From Rhizophagus irregularis (Eukaryota > Glomeromycota > Glomeromycetes > Glomerales > Glomeraceae), in assembly GCF_026210795.1 (NCBI RefSeq), contig NC_089455.1:2666001-2730000 (forward strand): a stretch of 64,000 bases of DNA, in the 5' to 3' direction. The position numbers and the translations under genes are program-made. Shown here one piece after another: positions 7,717 to 26,348 of the stretch. How positions within the stretch are numbered: the first letter of the stretch is position 1; the number at the start of each line of letters is the position of its first letter. The notes beneath the pieces were generated by a model. That model worked only from the letters and a program-made list of their open reading frames with translations. It was not told where the DNA came from and did not search any database.

Positions 7717-7906
7717 AGGATCCTGCCTACTATTAATCTTACCTTAAGATTTGCTTAAATTCTATTGGTTAATTAATTAAAAAGAAAAAAATCATAATAA
7801 TATAACATAAAATTTTCTTTTATAATGGGATCTTTAAAGAGTTTATATGTAAACTTTATCTTAAGTCATAAGGTGACCTATTTTATTTAATAATAGATGG
7901 AGTTCT
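7717..7906. mobile_element. Small MITE (AGGAYCCTGCCTACTATTAA family), uninterrupted copy
   Basis: 190 bp from AGGATCCTGCCTACTATTAA to a diverged inverted end near 7890-7906. It is flanked by ATATTTTT (7709-7716) and ATATTCTT (7907-7914), an 8-bp duplication with one mismatch. It is the reverse-oriented relative of the MITE at 19228-26340 and gives the empty-site sequence for the composite element inserted there. The 8-bp duplication suggests a hAT- or P-type source; the superfamily is an inference. Confidence 0.75.
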
Positions 7907-18784: not shown

Positions 18785-19196
18785 CTCCAGTGAAAATTTA
18801 GTGATCACATGACCAATTTTGTTGATCATTCCCAAAAATGGTAAGCAGATTTAATGAAAAAAATTATTGTTTTTTTTTTGAATAAAACTTACTACAGAGT
18901 ACAGATATTTTCTAATTTTAAATTTATATGCTATATCGTTTTTTAAATACAGGTTTTTGTAAAATTAATTATTTACAAATTATTATATAAAAAGTCAAAA
19001 TTTATATTTAAAATGTATTTTTCTTGTTTAGGTAAATTTGTAAAGCATTTAAAAATACACATACCATGTAAGTTTAAAAAATGTATGGATTTATATTATA
19101 TTTTATTCTTATTATTTATTTTTTCATTAAATTTGCTTACCATTTTTAGGAATGATCAACAAAATTGGTCACGTGATCGCTAAATTTTTATCGGTG
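18785..19196. mobile_element. MITE with about 75-bp inverted repeats
   Basis: Left arm (about 18788-18866) contains AAAATTTAGTGATCACATGA, CCAATTTTGTTGATCATTCC and AAAAATGGTAAGCA. The right arm (about 19119-19196) is its inverted complement with a few mismatches. The loop is AT-rich and non-coding. The outermost bases differ between arms and I could not fix a target duplication, so ends are approximate. Confidence 0.75.
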
Positions 19197-19325
19197 CTGC
19201 AAATATATTATTTTTATACAATCAGATAGGACCTGCCTACTATTAAAATAAGTCACCCTGTAGCTTAAGATAAGGTTTACATATAAAACTCTTTGAAGAT
19301 CTTACTATAAAAGGAAATTTTATAC

Positions 19326-20418
19326 ACTGGTCAAAAACCAATATATCGGGTAGCAGATATGTATCAGATATATACCCAATATGTGTAGTATTAATGCAGA
19401 AAATCAGGTACCCGATATGTGTAAGATATGTGTAAATATATTGCCAAAAGTATACGTGACTTAAAAAATGACCATTAAATCACATTATTTTGACATCCAG
19501 TGATCAGAATTTAATGATTTATGATTCATTGGATTCGTCTAATTGAGACGCATCTAACTGCAGTATTTTCAGTCTGTAAGTTCAATATATAGAAGTTATC
19601 ATTGAATGTCTAAAAACAGTAAAATGCAAATAACTTTTGATCCATCAATCCTAGAGACATGAAAATAATAGATACAATGTACCTTAACAAGACAAATCTA
19701 ATGAGTTATATTTCATCTTACTAGGTTTAATAGGGAAGAAAACGTTATGAAATTTGTATTTGCTAAATTTTTAAAGATGAAAAATGAATTATTTGCATTT
19801 TACTGTTGAGAATAACATCTGATTCATCAAATTTAGAGACAGAAAAATACTTCAATTTGATGCATCTTGATAATATGAATTCATTAAATCATAAATAATT
19901 AAATTCTGATCACTGGTTATTGAAATAATGTGATTTAACTTTATGAAGTAATTCATTTTTCGTCTTTAAAAATTTAGCAAATACAAATTTTATAACGTTT
20001 TCTTCCCTATTAAACCTAGTAAGATGAAATATAACTCATTAGATTTGTCTTGTTAAGGTACATTGTATCTATTATTTTCATGTCTCTAGGATTGATGGAT
20101 CAAAAGTTATTTGCATTTTACTGTTTTTAGACATTCAATGATAACTTCTGATATATTGAACTTACAGACTTGAAAATACTGCAGTTAGATGCGTCTCAAT
20201 TAGACGAATCCAATGAATCATAAATCATTAAATTCTGATCACTGGATGTCAAAATAATGTGATTTAATGGTCATTTTTTAGAAGTGCCAGATACTTTTGG
20301 CAATATATTTACACATATCTTACACATATCGGGTACCTGATTTTCTGCATTAATACTACACATATTGGGTATATATCTGATACATATCTGCTACCCGATA
20401 TATTGGTTTTTGACCAGT
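19326..20418. repeat. 1.1-kb near-perfect palindrome (fold-back arm pair)
   Basis: Left arm 19326-about 19800 and right arm about 19945-20418 are inverted copies with few mismatches; a diverged spacer of about 145 bp lies between them. Each arm contains ACCCGATATGTGTAAGATAT-like outer sequence and then copies of the four-motif unit; the spacer is another copy of that unit. The inner arm end lacks the final G and any ATA duplication, so it is not an independent insertion. Confidence 0.9.
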
Positions 20419-23400
20419 TCCCCAACTCATTTAATATTTCCTCCTTTAATGTTAATGGCCTTAAAATGTATGGTCGTAAATTAGAAGAAATTTCCTCTTT
20501 CTTTTCCTTAAAACATATTTCCTTTGGTGGTATCGTTGATACTCATCTCCACCCTAAACAAATGAAGTTTTTATCCAAACGTCTTTCTAATTATACTGTG
20601 TTTTCCTCGAATTTGGATACTTCTAAACAAATTCTTTCTTCTAGGTGTGTTTCCTATTTATAGAAAATTCTCTTGCATCACATGTACAAGATTTTAAATC
20701 CCATTCTTCACGACTGCTTTCTGTTGATTTATATTTCAAAGGCAATGTTAAATTGCGTATATTTGTTATTTATATCCCTCCTCCTGCTGAAAGTGTTCTG
20801 CGCACTGACACTATCGATTTGCTTATTCAACAACTTATCCTTACTAAACAAGCTGGTTTTTATCACGCTGTTTGTGGCGATTTTAACATGCATTTAGATA
20901 AATATTATCCTATTTATTTTAATCAACCCCAAATTGCTTCAAAACATATACACCGATTACTTTTTCATCTCCTTTCTCACGGTTATGAAGATCTTACACC
21001 CATTAATCTTTCCGACTCTTTAGGTACCTTTCATCGCAATGACCACATTACTCGTGCTTGACATGTCATTGGACCCAGCCCTCCCTTCTCAAAGGATTTG
21101 CTCTTACTGCTTGTATTTTTAATGCTCAAGACATCTGCACATCTGATCACAACCCTGTCATCACATATTATGATATGTCTTTACCTTCGCTCTACCAAAT
21201 TGGCTCGCGCTCGTCAACTTAAGCGCCAAACCCGTCGCGTTTTCAAATTTGATTCTGTAACTGATACTCAATGGACGGAATTTGCGACAAAGCTGATGCC
21301 TTATGTGACGTTTCACCATCAACCTTTTCCTCCTGGCATATCAATCAGATGTGCGAATATCTTCAATCGCGAATCCTTAAATCCGCCAACGCTACTTTAC
21401 CTTCTTCTACTGTTGGCAATAATTATACTCCTAAGGTTCCTAAAGATCTGGAAATTTTAACTCAAAATTATCGGTTTTTAAATCGCCTAATGCATTCGAT
21501 ACGTCTATTGCGCAAATATCCTTTAACTTATTCTGCTGCTCATGAACATAAGTGGTCTATACATTTGCATCGACTTCAAAACATTCTTCAATTATATAAG
21601 AAAGTTTTTACTTTCATTCCTACACTGCCCTTTTCTCTTTCATCATGTCGACAAGATAATTTCAAGTCACTTCTTGAAGATTTATCCAATATTTCAAAAT
21701 CCTTACGGGGATTTCATTTACTTCAAGAAAAAGAATTCCAAGACTCCTCCATCCGTGCTCACTTGGACGATAGAAATAATAATTTTGAAACTGACCTTTC
21801 CTCCTTTATTGATTCAGCGCTTTCTCGCACCCGTCGCCGTATCACTTTGGACCGTGTCTTCATCGACCATCCTTCTCAACCTCAGTTGTTTAACTGCTCC
21901 TATGACATAGATGATGCTGTTGTTAACCATTTCCAAAACTTTGTACCTATAAAGTCCACTCCTCCTGTATCTATTGATACACTACCTGATAGATGGTCTT
22001 CTGCCTATCAACCTATGGATGATGTGTCCTCCTCCATCTATGATTCTTTAATGAATCCCCTACCCTTGATGAATGGTTATCCACCGTTTCTTCTACTCCT
22101 AACGGTAAAGCCTCTGGTCCTTCCATGATTACCTATGAGATGCTCAAACATCTCGGATCTCGTACCTCGGCTTTACTCCTCATTTTGATTCAATCATGCC
22201 TTTCCAAAGCTGATATTCCTGACTTATGGCGACAAGCAATGGTTTTTCCTATTCCCAAACCTCACGAATGGAAGTGTCAATTAAAAAATACTCGCCCTAT
22301 CACCCTACTCGAAGTGATTAGGAAATCTCTTGTCAAACTTTTTTATAATCGCCTTTCTACCATTATGGCTTCACATGATGTCCTTAAAGGTGGTAACTTC
22401 GCTGGTCTTCCTGGAGGTTCTTGCCGCGACCCTATTATTACTTTAGAATCTATTATCCATGATGCTGATATCAACAAAAACCCGCTTTGGATTCTTTCCC
22501 AAGATATTTCTAAAGCTTTTGATTCAGTTGATCTAACGATGTTACGTTTCGCTTTAGAACGTATACGTCTTCCAGCCTCCGCTGTTAAGTTCATCCTTTC
22601 ACTTTTTATGAAACGCACTAATCGCGTTCTCACTGCTCATGGATCTACACCTGCCTATAGGGTTCGCATTGGTATTGACCAAGGCGAAGTTATCTCTCCT
22701 CTTTTATGGGTTATTTATATTGATCCCTTACTTACTGTTTTAAAGAATGAGATGATGGACCCTTATGTTCTTTCTACACCGTCTTTAATTGATTCTTCAA
22801 GTCCTTCTCTTGATTTGAAGATTAATAATTTAGTATTTATGGATGACTCTACTCTTATTTCCTCGTCAAAAGCTGGCATGGAATTTATGCTATCCATTAC
22901 TGAAGAATTTTATCAGATCAATAACACTTCCACCAATCATAACAAATATGTGTTAATTACTAATTCGTTGCCTTTGACTTCAAATTCCACTTTACCCCCT
23001 ATTACTTTTAATTTGGATTTATCCTCTTTAAATAGTGTTCCTTCCATTATTATTACCCCAATTTCCATGACAACTTCTTTTCGTTTTTTAGGTGTCTGGT
23101 TCAACATTAAAAGCTCCCGGGATTTTGTCAAAAAGCAACTTAAACGTGAATGCTGCTTATTCGCTGCGACTATTCGCCCCGCAAAGCTCTCTTCCAAACA
23201 AGTTGTATATTTACACAATGCCGTTCTTATACCGAAACTTGAATACCGGATGCAAGTTACTCACTTATCTGAATCTGACTGTCACCTAATAACGAGAAGT
23301 ATACGATCTGTTGTAAAACATAAAGCAAATTTTTCTCGTTCTTTACCCAATTCCATTTTATTTTTGTCTCATGCCTTGGGCTTGATTAATTTGTTTGCTC

Positions 23401-25943
23401 ATCAACGACAATGTCATATTACTAATTTATTTTTAATGGCTAATTCTTCTTCTGTTTTTATTCAATCTCTTTTTATTTATAGATTGAGTTTAATTCAATA
23501 TAATTTTTTGATTCCTATTTCTCCCCTTTTAATTAAAGATTGGTCTATATGGTCTTCTTTATTTTCTTTTAAGAAAGATTATATCGCATGCACTATTGCT
23601 CTCTTGTCTTCTACTCCTTTTCGTTTGCTTCATACTCAACTTTCGAAGCTTTCCGAATTTGTCCTTGTTAGATGGACGCGTTGCCTTTATTTGAATGCAT
23701 GACGCCTAAAGCCTTTAAAGCCTATTTTCCCATCCTGCGTAAACGACAACTGTTTTATTTATCTCAGCTTGTTACTCCCCAAGGAACTCATTTAATTTCC
23801 TGGAAGGCTTACTATGACAATTTGGTTGGACGACGTGGCCGCAGCCGTAGTCCACTTATTGGTACAAAGATATTCAACAAGCTACCACTATTCCCGACTC
23901 CAATAATCGTTTGCTGGACCAATTTAATTTTACGCCTACGATTGACTCTTCCTTTTATGATTTGACTCCTTGTTTATCTTCTCCTCCTACTACAAAAAAT
24001 TGGATTGTCACGTTGGATGATTATGGTTCTCCTTTTTTTGGCAAACAACTTCTAGTCCAAGCTAGTCGTGGTACTTGTTCTATTGTTCACTGGATTTCTC
24101 CTGATTGTGAATCCTCACCTGGTGATCTCATCAGACTTTCTCCTTGTCCTGGTTGTGCTGCTCATATTCCTCTGCCTCCTTCCAAAAAATGGAATGCTGA
24201 TTTAACCCTTTGTACACCTACGGTCTCTCTACAACATTCGCTTATTCTGCCCACCACCAACGAGCGGATTAAACGTACTACTTCTGAAGTGACTTCCCCT
24301 TTTACTTGGGCTGATATAGAAGATGGTGTCCGTCTTTATTATAGTAGACTGGAATTTGACATTGATTCTTCTCCAGCAAATACCACTGTAGCTTCCGTTA
24401 CTCCTGTTACTATTGAATCATCGGCTACTGCTGTTTTTGCTAACTCCCCGTTGGTCATTTCTTCAGACTCGCGTTACATCTTTTTCACTCGATTGGATCT
24501 CTTACAATTTAGCACTCCCCGATGTTTCTATGGGTCGGCTTGGTTCAATGCAAATAGTCCCCTCCCTGATGCAGGCTTTCCCAACTCCATCGCCACCTAT
24601 GCTCACGGTCTTATTCGTGATAACCCTTCTTCTTCTCGAGCTGAAGCTGCTGCTATTTACGCTGTTTTAACTATCTCTCCTCGCGACTCTGAAGTTACTA
24701 TTTATACTGACTCACAAACTGCCATTGATGGTCTTCGAAGTTGTTTTTCCTCTATCTACTCAAATAGTCGTTTGTACTATAAAACTACAAATTTTGAACT
24801 TTGGGCTATTATCGAGCGAACCATCTTCTCTAAAAATTTGACTGTCCTTCCCGTCAAAGTTAAAGCTCATTCTGGCAATTATTTAAACGATTTTGCTGAT
24901 TCCTTGGCCAATACCGCCCATACCGCGTCATCCAGTATATTGATCTCTGGAATAGACCTGGCCTCTGCCCATGATTTTGTCTTAATTTATGACAATGATG
25001 TTGTCTGTGAATCTAATCCGCGACACCTTCTTCAACAATACTATCAAACGCAGTTAATGCGCGATTTGTTAAGCTTAACGCGATTTCACTTTATTTCTTT
25101 ATTATCAACTAATATAGATTATATTGTTGACTGGGAACTTACTTGGTTCACTCTAAATTTCAAGCCCTCTCATGACGCGTCCTTTACTCCTGAGCACGCT
25201 TCAAGACACCTAACCTTTAAATTCAAACTTTTCTTAGATGATTTGCCTACATTGGAAAAGCTTAAACGGACCCGACCCTAGTAACATACATGGACGAATT
25301 AACTTGCCGTTCTTGTATCGACCGCTTGGAAGACCTGATGCACCTTTTTATGTGCAAAAAGCGACGTCTGCCTATGCAACAAATTCTCCAATCTTATCAA
25401 AATCATTTGATTTCCAAACTTCTGGAAGCGAGCAATTTGGCTGATATTGATCCTTCTCCATTCATAGCTAAACTTACTTCTTTCTTTATGCTCGGTCCCT
25501 TTTCATCTACAAATTGGTCCTCCTTTGCCCTTATCCGTGGTTGCTTACCCAAACTCTTCATCGACTTATTTGTTGATCTATCCATTCCAAGAACTTCTGC
25601 GATTAAAGTTATCGCTGCTATTCATAACAATTTTGTCCAGAAATTCAGAAGACGAATCTGGAATCTGCGTTCTTATGAAAAAAGTAGATGGGAAAACGCG
25701 ATGAACATTACCTATAAGTTGAAAACTACTCCGAAGCCATCTAATCTGCCATTGTCGACGTACATACCTTACTCATCTTTACCACCTCCGACCCTACACG
25801 TTTCACGTGACTCCGGAACCGATTGGTTTACGAACTCGATGAAATATGGTTTGCCATGGTTTAATCACTTTTCGGGTTTTATGGGTCGTCTAACGGTGCT
25901 ACTTAATAACAGCTTTTGCAGGATGGTGTGTCGATTTTTATAG
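20419..25943 (+). pseudogene. Non-LTR retrotransposon (APE, RT, RNase H, CCHC), broken
   Basis: One polyprotein is spread over several frames. An APE-type endonuclease comes first: FNVNGL near 20450, GDFN near 20880 and SDHNP near 21145. A reverse transcriptase (about 22090-23300) follows, with DISKAFD, GIDQGEVISPLLW and the FMDD catalytic box. RNase H I (about 24500-24940) has RAEAAAIYA, IYTDSQTA and the late NDFADSLA. The C-terminus has a C-x2-C-x8-H-x3-C knuckle near 25300. Frame breaks lie near 20660, 21061 (TGA), 21140, 21270, 22080, 23700, 23900 and 25280. The first RNase H aspartate is Tyr (FYGSAWF). The copy cannot make an intact protein unless some breaks are assembly errors. The reading frame starts right at the palindrome's inner end. 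The 3' part to 26191 is T-rich, non-coding, with an AATAAAG near 26161. Confidence 0.9.
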
Positions 25944-26348
25944 TGGGCGTGCTATTTGTTATTTTGTTAGCATAGTTGCTTCTACTTTGGTTGGAATATA
26001 TCGGGAAGATCTGGGGAAATTTAGTGTAATGCGATTTTTCTTTTTTTAGATTAATTTTTTACTTTATTTTTTCTTAGGAGACTATATAGCTTTGTTTTTA
26101 GTTAGTTTTATTTTTATCTTTTTTTTTATTTTTGTAAATTGTATAAGTTCGAATAATTTTAATAAAGATAAAGGCTACTATGCCACGTTTGCCTGGTTTT
26201 TGACCAGTGATATTACATTATTATGATTTTTTTTTCTTTTTAGTTAATTAACCAATAGAATTCAAGCAAATCTTAAGGTAAGATTTTATATAAAAGTAAA
26301 ATTTCTACTGGTAATATATCTTAATAGTAAGCGAGGTCCTAATCAGGT

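What the first reader, a model, noticed from the sequence alone, without database searches (positions are those of the whole stretch)
19325..26209. DNA-transposon ends around a LINE, with an in-window empty site
CACTG ends, a 3-bp ATA duplication and a gapless join when excised show that a 6.9-kb block inserted as one unit. Inside is not a CACTA transposase but a palindrome and a LINE with APE, RT, RNase H and CCHC parts. Either a LINE was captured by a CACTG element, or a retroelement gained inverted ends. Both are unusual.
Basis: partly seen in the sequence, partly recalled or inferred. Interest (0 to 1): 0.75.

Follow-up and report, generated by a model that had tools for sequence, protein, structure and literature searches.

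The report
LINE that homes to transposon ends
A copy-and-paste mobile element in this genome inserts mostly at one 15-letter sequence at the tips of a small cut-and-paste transposon, which explains the odd nested block in this window and shows one genome parasite using another as its landing pad.

Summary
In detail: CACTG ends, a 3-bp ATA duplication and a gapless join matching an in-window paralogue. But the block is nested, not one captured unit. A palindromic non-coding CACTG element (MITE A, 295 bp elsewhere) inserted first; a 5'-truncated LINE then entered one base from its right end, duplicating the terminal 15-mer TGGTTTTTGACCAGT. Genome-wide this is a rule. Of 39 full-length LINE 5' ends read, 37 directly follow that 15-mer: 22 at MITE A tips, 13 after another LINE copy, 2 after a non-coding element. 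Of 80 distinct LINE 3' junctions, 60 carry it. The two 15-mers flanking one LINE are identical in 22 of 25 pairs (permutation mean 5.4), and an off-target copy has its own 15-bp duplication, so the 15-mer is duplicated target. The LINE is therefore site-specific for a DNA transposon's inverted-repeat tip. A sister lineage uses another fixed 15-mer (split supported 100/100); rarer copies use a site inside another palindromic MITE. It works like frog Tx1L in Tx1D (recalled), but has RNase H; its clade was not placed.

The parts
19322..19324 (.). left copy of the 3-bp target duplication (ATA) of the CACTG element
19325..20418 (+). MITE A: palindromic CACTG-ended element (outer 117 and 116 bp match the 295-bp MITE A found elsewhere), with a second palindromic core
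19442..20302 (.). core B, a second palindromic element in place of the ~61-bp MITE A centre
20404..20418 (+). 5' copy of the LINE's 15-bp target TGGTTTTTGACCAGT
20419..26193 (+). LINE, 5'-truncated relative to other copies, frames broken; ends ...GTTTGCC
22044..23699 (+). reverse transcriptase frame of the LINE
   Evidence: Pfam RVT_1 7.1e-22
23851..25278 (+). RNase H frame of the LINE
   Evidence: Pfam RNase_H 7.2e-11
26194..26208 (+). 3' copy of the LINE's 15-bp target duplication
26209..26209 (+). last base (G) of MITE A, left outside the LINE's duplication
   Evidence: the same G follows the 15-mer in 27 of the 29 MITE A-type junctions where no LINE or fam2 follows
26210..26212 (.). right copy of the 3-bp target duplication (ATA)
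7735..7885 (-). paralogue of the flanking repeat without the insertion (empty-site model)

Best explanation
A CACTG-ended palindromic MITE inserted first, with a 3-bp duplication. A LINE then inserted into its inverted-repeat tip by target-primed reverse transcription at a fixed site, duplicating the 15-mer TGGTTTTTGACCAGT; the LINE family is site-specific for that tip. Shown: the site, the 15-bp duplication, the fixed orientation, tandem and head-to-head arrays, and at least one copy with a full-length open ORF2 frame. Inferred from the junctions: the first nick is CACTGGTCAAAAACCA^ATATAT, where cDNA is primed, and the second strand is cut TGGTTTTTGACCAGT^G, one base from the transposon end. 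Also inferred: that the LINE's own endonuclease sets the specificity, and that its RNA brings a few target-like bases (AGT) at its 5' end. Each insertion leaves a complete 15-mer on both sides, so the landing site is renewed and a next LINE can insert in tandem; MITE A has two inverted tips, so LINEs sit on both sides pointing outward.
For: 5' side: of 39 full-length 5' ends counted, 22 follow a MITE A tip with the 15-mer, 13 another LINE's 3' end with it, 2 fam2 with it; the fortieth, in L025, also follows a LINE 3' end with it. 3' side: 60 of 80 distinct junctions carry the 15-mer; LINE end plus exact 15-mer occurs 64 times, reversed control 0. Duplication: 22 of 25 paired flanks identical, permutation mean 5.4, maximum 15 in 100,000. 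Off-target copy with a 15-bp duplication TAGATCACTTTTAAC and no CACTG end. MITE A copies free of full-length LINE at both tips: 21 of 40 best, 14 of these with identical 3-bp flanks. Outward LINE sequence on the other side of at least 7 of 23 LINE-bearing MITE A copies.
Against: Two of the 39 5' ends are not clearly on target: one decayed tip (L048), one off-target (L057). Of 80 3' junctions, 20 have other sites, 17 of them falling into three other recurrent 15-mers. Three of 25 pairs differ, and tandem neighbours share a 15-mer, so pairs are not all independent. Pairing of ends rests on strand and ~8.2-kb spacing. The loci are the best matches to the window copy plus the first places listed, not a random sample. 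No biochemical evidence.
Confidence: 0.94

Rival explanations
1. A CACTG transposon captured a LINE and the 6.9-kb composite inserted here as one unit.
For: Outer 3-bp flanks match in the window and in 7 of 8 MITE + LINE composites tested, window included; the outer CACTG/CAGTG tips stay complete after LINE entry.
Against: The window junction occurs once in the genome. LINE copies sit at many different MITE A copies, and flanking 15-mers follow the local MITE variant. Matching outer flanks are equally expected if the MITE came first.
Confidence: 0.04
2. The LINE itself carries the inverted end sequence as part of its 3' end (a retroelement that gained CACTG ends).
For: Most LINE 3' ends read are followed by the 15-mer (60 of 80).
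Against: The off-target copy ends at ...GTTTGCC and has TAGATCACTTTTAAC on both sides; variants of the 15-mer go with the locus, not with the LINE; sister copies with the same LINE end have other 15-mers.
Confidence: 0.01
3. Specificity comes from a host or MITE-bound protein that tethers the LINE machinery, not from the LINE endonuclease reading DNA.
For: Not tested here. Tethering is described for elements such as TRE5-A and Tf1, which insert near and not at a fixed base (passage of PMC3706591).
Against: Insertion is at one base position, also in tandem arrays where the 15-mer lies next to another LINE and not next to the MITE body (13 of 39).
Confidence: 0.1

Closest known systems
Tx1L in the DNA transposon Tx1D of Xenopus (Tx1 clade)
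   Same: An APE-type LINE with a fixed site inside a DNA transposon. The Tx1L/Tx1D relation is recalled; seen here: a passage that lists other TEs among LINE targets and cites the Tx1L endonuclease paper by title (PMC8869645), and a passage that Tx1-clade target-specific LINEs carry APE (PMC4640811).
   Different: Here the site is the tip of the inverted repeat, one base from the transposon end, so both tips serve and are renewed. ORF2 has RNase H, which Tx1 elements lack (recalled). Host inferred to be a fungus.
R1 clade (R1, TRAS, SART)
   Same: APE-type, target-specific LINEs (PMC4640811 passage); tandem insertion and ~14-bp duplication as in R1 (recalled).
   Different: Their targets are rRNA genes and telomeric repeats (recalled); RT phylogeny not tested here, so kinship is open.
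LINE families listed for Rhizophagus irregularis (L1-Tx1, L1-R1, I, and others; PMC11075540 section 10; LINE R1 in a passage of PMC8647823)
   Same: Probably include this LINE, if the host is that fungus (inference).
   Different: The words target site do not occur in either main text; site specificity is not described in what I read.
CACTA/CMC DNA transposons and their MITEs
   Same: CACTG ends and 3-bp duplications of MITE A.
   Different: No transposase partner with these tips was found; frames seen between MITE A halves look hAT-like (motif recall) or integrase-like and like later insertions.

Membership tests
Target-specific non-LTR retrotransposon (LINE) | reverse transcriptase of LINE type | tested here: met
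   RVT_1 3.8e-21; best PDB matches are R2 and LINE-1 ORF2 proteins
Target-specific non-LTR retrotransposon (LINE) | apurinic-type endonuclease | tested here: inconclusive
   Exo_endo_phos_2 E = 3e-4, 21.1 bits, below the curated cut-off 27.4; no PDB match for that region
Target-specific non-LTR retrotransposon (LINE) | insertion at one base position of a repeated target | tested here: met
   37 of 39 5' ends; 60 of 80 3' junctions at one site and 17 at three other recurrent sites
Target-specific non-LTR retrotransposon (LINE) | target-site duplication | tested here: met
   22 of 25 pairs identical; off-target 15-bp duplication
Tx1 clade | RT phylogeny | not tested
   no reference set of LINE clades was at hand
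Tx1 clade | no RNase H domain (recalled) | tested here: not met
   RNase_H 3.3e-11 in ORF2, 7.2e-11 in the window
R1 clade | RT phylogeny | not tested
   as above
CACTA/CMC DNA transposon (MITE A) | CACTA/G termini in inverted repeats | tested here: met
   CACTGGTC...GACCAGTG in MITE A copies
CACTA/CMC DNA transposon (MITE A) | 3-bp target duplication (2-3 bp in this superfamily, recalled) | tested here: met
   identical 3-bp flanks in 14 of 21 MITE A copies without full-length LINE or fam2 at a tip; the other 7 have diverged or unreadable ends
CACTA/CMC DNA transposon (MITE A) | CMC transposase partner with the same tips | tested here: inconclusive
   three tip-flanked intervals read, none with a CMC transposase recognised; no genome-wide transposase search made
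Composite CACTG transposon carrying a LINE | same composite junction at more than one locus | tested here: not met
   window junction found once

The most novel reading that the evidence does not exclude
A LINE lineage has radiated by switching among 15-bp landing sites in other mobile elements: one group uses the tips of a CACTG MITE, its sister a site beside ORFs of a multicopy element, and rarer copies a site inside the inverted repeat of another palindromic MITE. By inserting one base from the end and regenerating the 16-bp tip, the LINE leaves the DNA transposon's outer ends complete, so the LINE + MITE composite might still be mobilised and the LINE would ride on its own target.
Probability: 0.3. 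Interest if true: 0.8.

Novelty: new variant of a known kind. Interest (0 to 1): 0.64.

Why it matters
Targeting high-copy, expendable DNA is a known survival strategy of LINEs, with RNA genes, telomeric repeats and microsatellites as the usual targets and other TEs only as a mention in what I read. Here the landing pad is the end of another transposon, which multiplies by itself and is renewed by each insertion. Related subfamilies with different fixed 15-mers in one genome, with ORF2 proteins 68% identical, would make the evolution of LINE target choice directly testable. It also explains palindromic and tandem LINE arrays that would otherwise be read as odd composites.

Tried and rejected
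Capture of a LINE by a CACTG element, and a LINE that gained inverted ends: rejected (see rivals). Autonomous partner of MITE A: three 3.0-5.0 kb tip-flanked intervals (L174-L176) were read; their frames look hAT-like (motif recall; BED finger 9e-4 in L175) or integrase-like (rve 0.0074 in L176) and like later insertions; no CMC transposase was recognised and no genome-wide transposase search was made. Clade of the LINE: PDB sequence search gave R2 and LINE-1 proteins plus weak reverse transcriptase-like hits and nothing relevant for the endonuclease; left open. Rfam found nothing in the five X-site loci given. Paper searches showed me no LINE specific to a DNA-transposon end in a fungus; I saw listings and, of six papers, passages or one section. 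This is not proof that it is unpublished.

Full report
OBSERVATION. CACTGGTCAAAAACCA begins at 19325, TGGTTTTTGACCAGTG ends at 26209, and ATA lies on both sides. The joined flanks match 7735-7885 (minus strand) at 88% with no gap at the junction; that copy reads ATG where the window has ATA. It is a paralogue of the surrounding repeat and so models the empty site. A third copy of the end sequence lies inside the block at 20404-20418, at the far end of the palindrome and directly before the LINE. The LINE, 20419-26193, is thus bracketed by two copies of TGGTTTTTGACCAGT.

LAYERS. (1) A CACTG element: the outer parts of the palindrome match the arms of a 295-bp palindromic MITE (MITE A) found in full elsewhere. 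I looked at the 40 best-scoring MITE A copies (475 candidates in its first look, 40 scored). Of these 40, 17 have a full-length LINE 5' end at a tip, 2 have fam2, and 21 have neither; truncated LINE neighbours were not assessed in this count. Of the 21, 14 show identical 3-bp flanks. (2) A second palindromic core, B (19442-20302), stands in place of the ~61-bp MITE A centre. (3) The LINE, 5'-truncated at 20419 relative to other copies. The order of (2) and (3) is not known.

THE LINE FAMILY. The window's LINE 3' end gave 43 matches from 40 scored of 279 candidates; a general 3'-end pattern occurs 176 times (first 100 places listed). A full-length copy is about 8.2 kb. The copy at C5 (L129) has a 1898-aa ORF2 frame with RT (3.8e-21), RNase H (3.3e-11) and a weak endonuclease match (3e-4, below the curated cut-off), and a 475-aa frame with RRM (2.1e-9). 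The window copy is broken across several frames.

SITE SPECIFICITY, 5' SIDE. One search scored 40 full-length 5' ends (of 150 candidates). Thirty-nine were cut as L028-L066 and counted: 22 follow a MITE A tip with the 15-mer, 13 follow the 3' end of another LINE copy with it, 2 follow fam2 with it, 1 follows a MITE A with a decayed tip (L048), and 1 is off-target (L057) (up to 3 mismatches allowed). The fortieth lies in L025 and also follows a LINE 3' end with the 15-mer. At least 7 of the 23 MITE A copies concerned have LINE sequence in the opposite direction on their other side (L039, L048, L051, L060, L061, L065, L066), so LINEs point outward from both tips.

SITE SPECIFICITY, 3' SIDE. All loci held were scanned for the LINE's terminal motif, whatever follows it: 102 raw junctions, 80 distinct. 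Sixty carry the MITE A 15-mer (up to 4 mismatches), 11 carry TTGACAAGGACTGAT (X), 4 CAAAAGTGTGACTTA-like (Z), 2 TATAGTAAAATATCA (W), and 3 are other. Identical flanks were collapsed, which under-counts X. After the 60 come: terminal G and then flank without a LINE or fam2 match, 27; a LINE 5' end, 17; internal LINE sequence, 10; fam2, 4; other, 2. The exact 23-base pattern of LINE end plus 15-mer occurs 64 times in the genome and the reversed control 0 times. The loci are best matches and first-listed places, not a random sample.

THE 15-MER IS DUPLICATED TARGET. For 25 LINE copies whose two ends I paired by strand and ~8.2-kb spacing, the flanking 15-mers (the upstream-most copy was taken on the 5' side) are identical in 22, including rare variants. 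Random re-pairing gives a mean of 5.4 and a maximum of 15 in 100,000. Tandem neighbours share a 15-mer, so these are not all independent; three pairs differ (L060, L038, L048). The off-target copy on C11 has TAGATCACTTTTAAC on both sides and no CACTG end (L057, L071). The LINE itself therefore ends at ...TTTGCC. Its 5' junction still carries AGTAGT although the local target does not end in AGT, which suggests that these bases came with the LINE RNA (inference). Of the 37 on-target 5' junctions, 31 hold extra bases between target and LINE, mostly target-like: AGT, GACCAGT or a nearly whole second 15-mer.

COMPOSITE UNIT? The outer 3-bp flanks of MITE + LINE(s) agree in 7 of the 8 composites for which I had both sides (window; L063/L185; L054/L086, using the inner of two left tips; L052/L007; L035/L181; L045/L098; L096/L100) and not in L040/L184. 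This fits MITE first and LINE later; alone it would also fit a moving composite. The window's palindrome/LINE junction occurs once in the genome, so nothing shows that this composite moved.

SISTER LINEAGES. A tree of 32 rows (30 different; last ~800 bp) splits into a side with all 13 MITE A-type insertions and three copies at other sites (L156 with Z, L173 with W, L172), and a side with all 15 X-type insertions plus L150, which is X-type but was labelled other because of a 2-base offset; the split has support 100/100, and none of 500 shuffles needed as few label changes. ORF2 of the X copy L177 is 68% identical to that of L129. X lies in a multicopy sequence, present without LINE in L152 and L153, next to frames with weak 2C_adapt-like and F-box-like matches below the curated cut-offs. 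The Z pattern occurs 387 times and, in the four LINE-free loci read, lies in a ~297-bp repeat that is 77% self-inverse, another MITE-like element.

MECHANISM. Target-primed reverse transcription at a fixed site is the most likely process; nick positions follow from the junctions (first strand CACTGGTCAAAAACCA^AT, second TGGTTTTTGACCAGT^G). A passage of PMC6895275 says APE LINEs generally make 10-20 bp duplications, which fits 15. Each insertion restores the 15-mer on both sides, which explains the tandem arrays.

COMPARISON. [quoted passage not shown] PMC8869645 (passages) lists other TEs among LINE targets and cites the Tx1L endonuclease paper, which is not held. That Tx1L sits in Tx1D is recalled. 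RNase H speaks against filing this as Tx1; the clade is left open. PMC11075540 (section 10 and passages) lists L1-Tx1, L1-R1 and I LINEs in Rhizophagus irregularis, and PMC8647823 (passages) lists LINE R1; neither describes site specificity in what I read. That the window comes from this fungus is my inference from genome size (146.7 Mb in 32 contigs) and low GC (28%); no call names it.

The count of 5' ends was mended (39 counted plus one in L025), the split in the tree restated, and the confidence of the main reading set at 0.94.

Noticed in passing
L152, L153 (X site without LINE); L150, L151 (with LINE): The sister LINE lineage inserts at TTGACAAGGACTGAT beside ORFs of a multicopy element with weak 2C_adapt-like and F-box-like matches; the target core occurs twice, 52 bp apart, in the LINE-free copies.
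   Followed up: partly
L195-L198: The Z target CRAAARTGTGACTTA (387 exact places) lies in a ~297-bp self-inverse repeat, a further palindromic MITE-like family that hosts LINE and fam2 insertions.
   Followed up: partly
L025:4165-5421; L027; L055: fam2, a ~1.25-kb element without similarity to the LINE ORFs, with a LINE-like 3' tail, sits at the same 15-mer and also at the Z site; it may be a non-autonomous partner moved by these LINEs.
   Followed up: partly
G000:C2:2323175-2366703 (L138-L140, L162-L164, L177, L192): Six LINE 3' ends on one strand, 8.2-9.5 kb apart: a tandem array of the X-type LINE.
   Followed up: partly
window 19442-20302; L020-L024: Core B occurs elsewhere with other tips, CACCCACC...GGTGGGTG or close variants flanked by TA, while in the window it begins TTGCC and ends GGCAA between TA and TA inside MITE A.
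   Followed up: partly
window 18793-19188: A further foldback repeat (70-nt arms, 94% complementary, 256 nt apart) lies just left of the block.
   Followed up: no
L174, L175, L176: MITE A halves separated by kilobases that hold hAT-like, BED-finger and integrase-like frames; MITE A itself seems to be a target of other transposons.
   Followed up: partly
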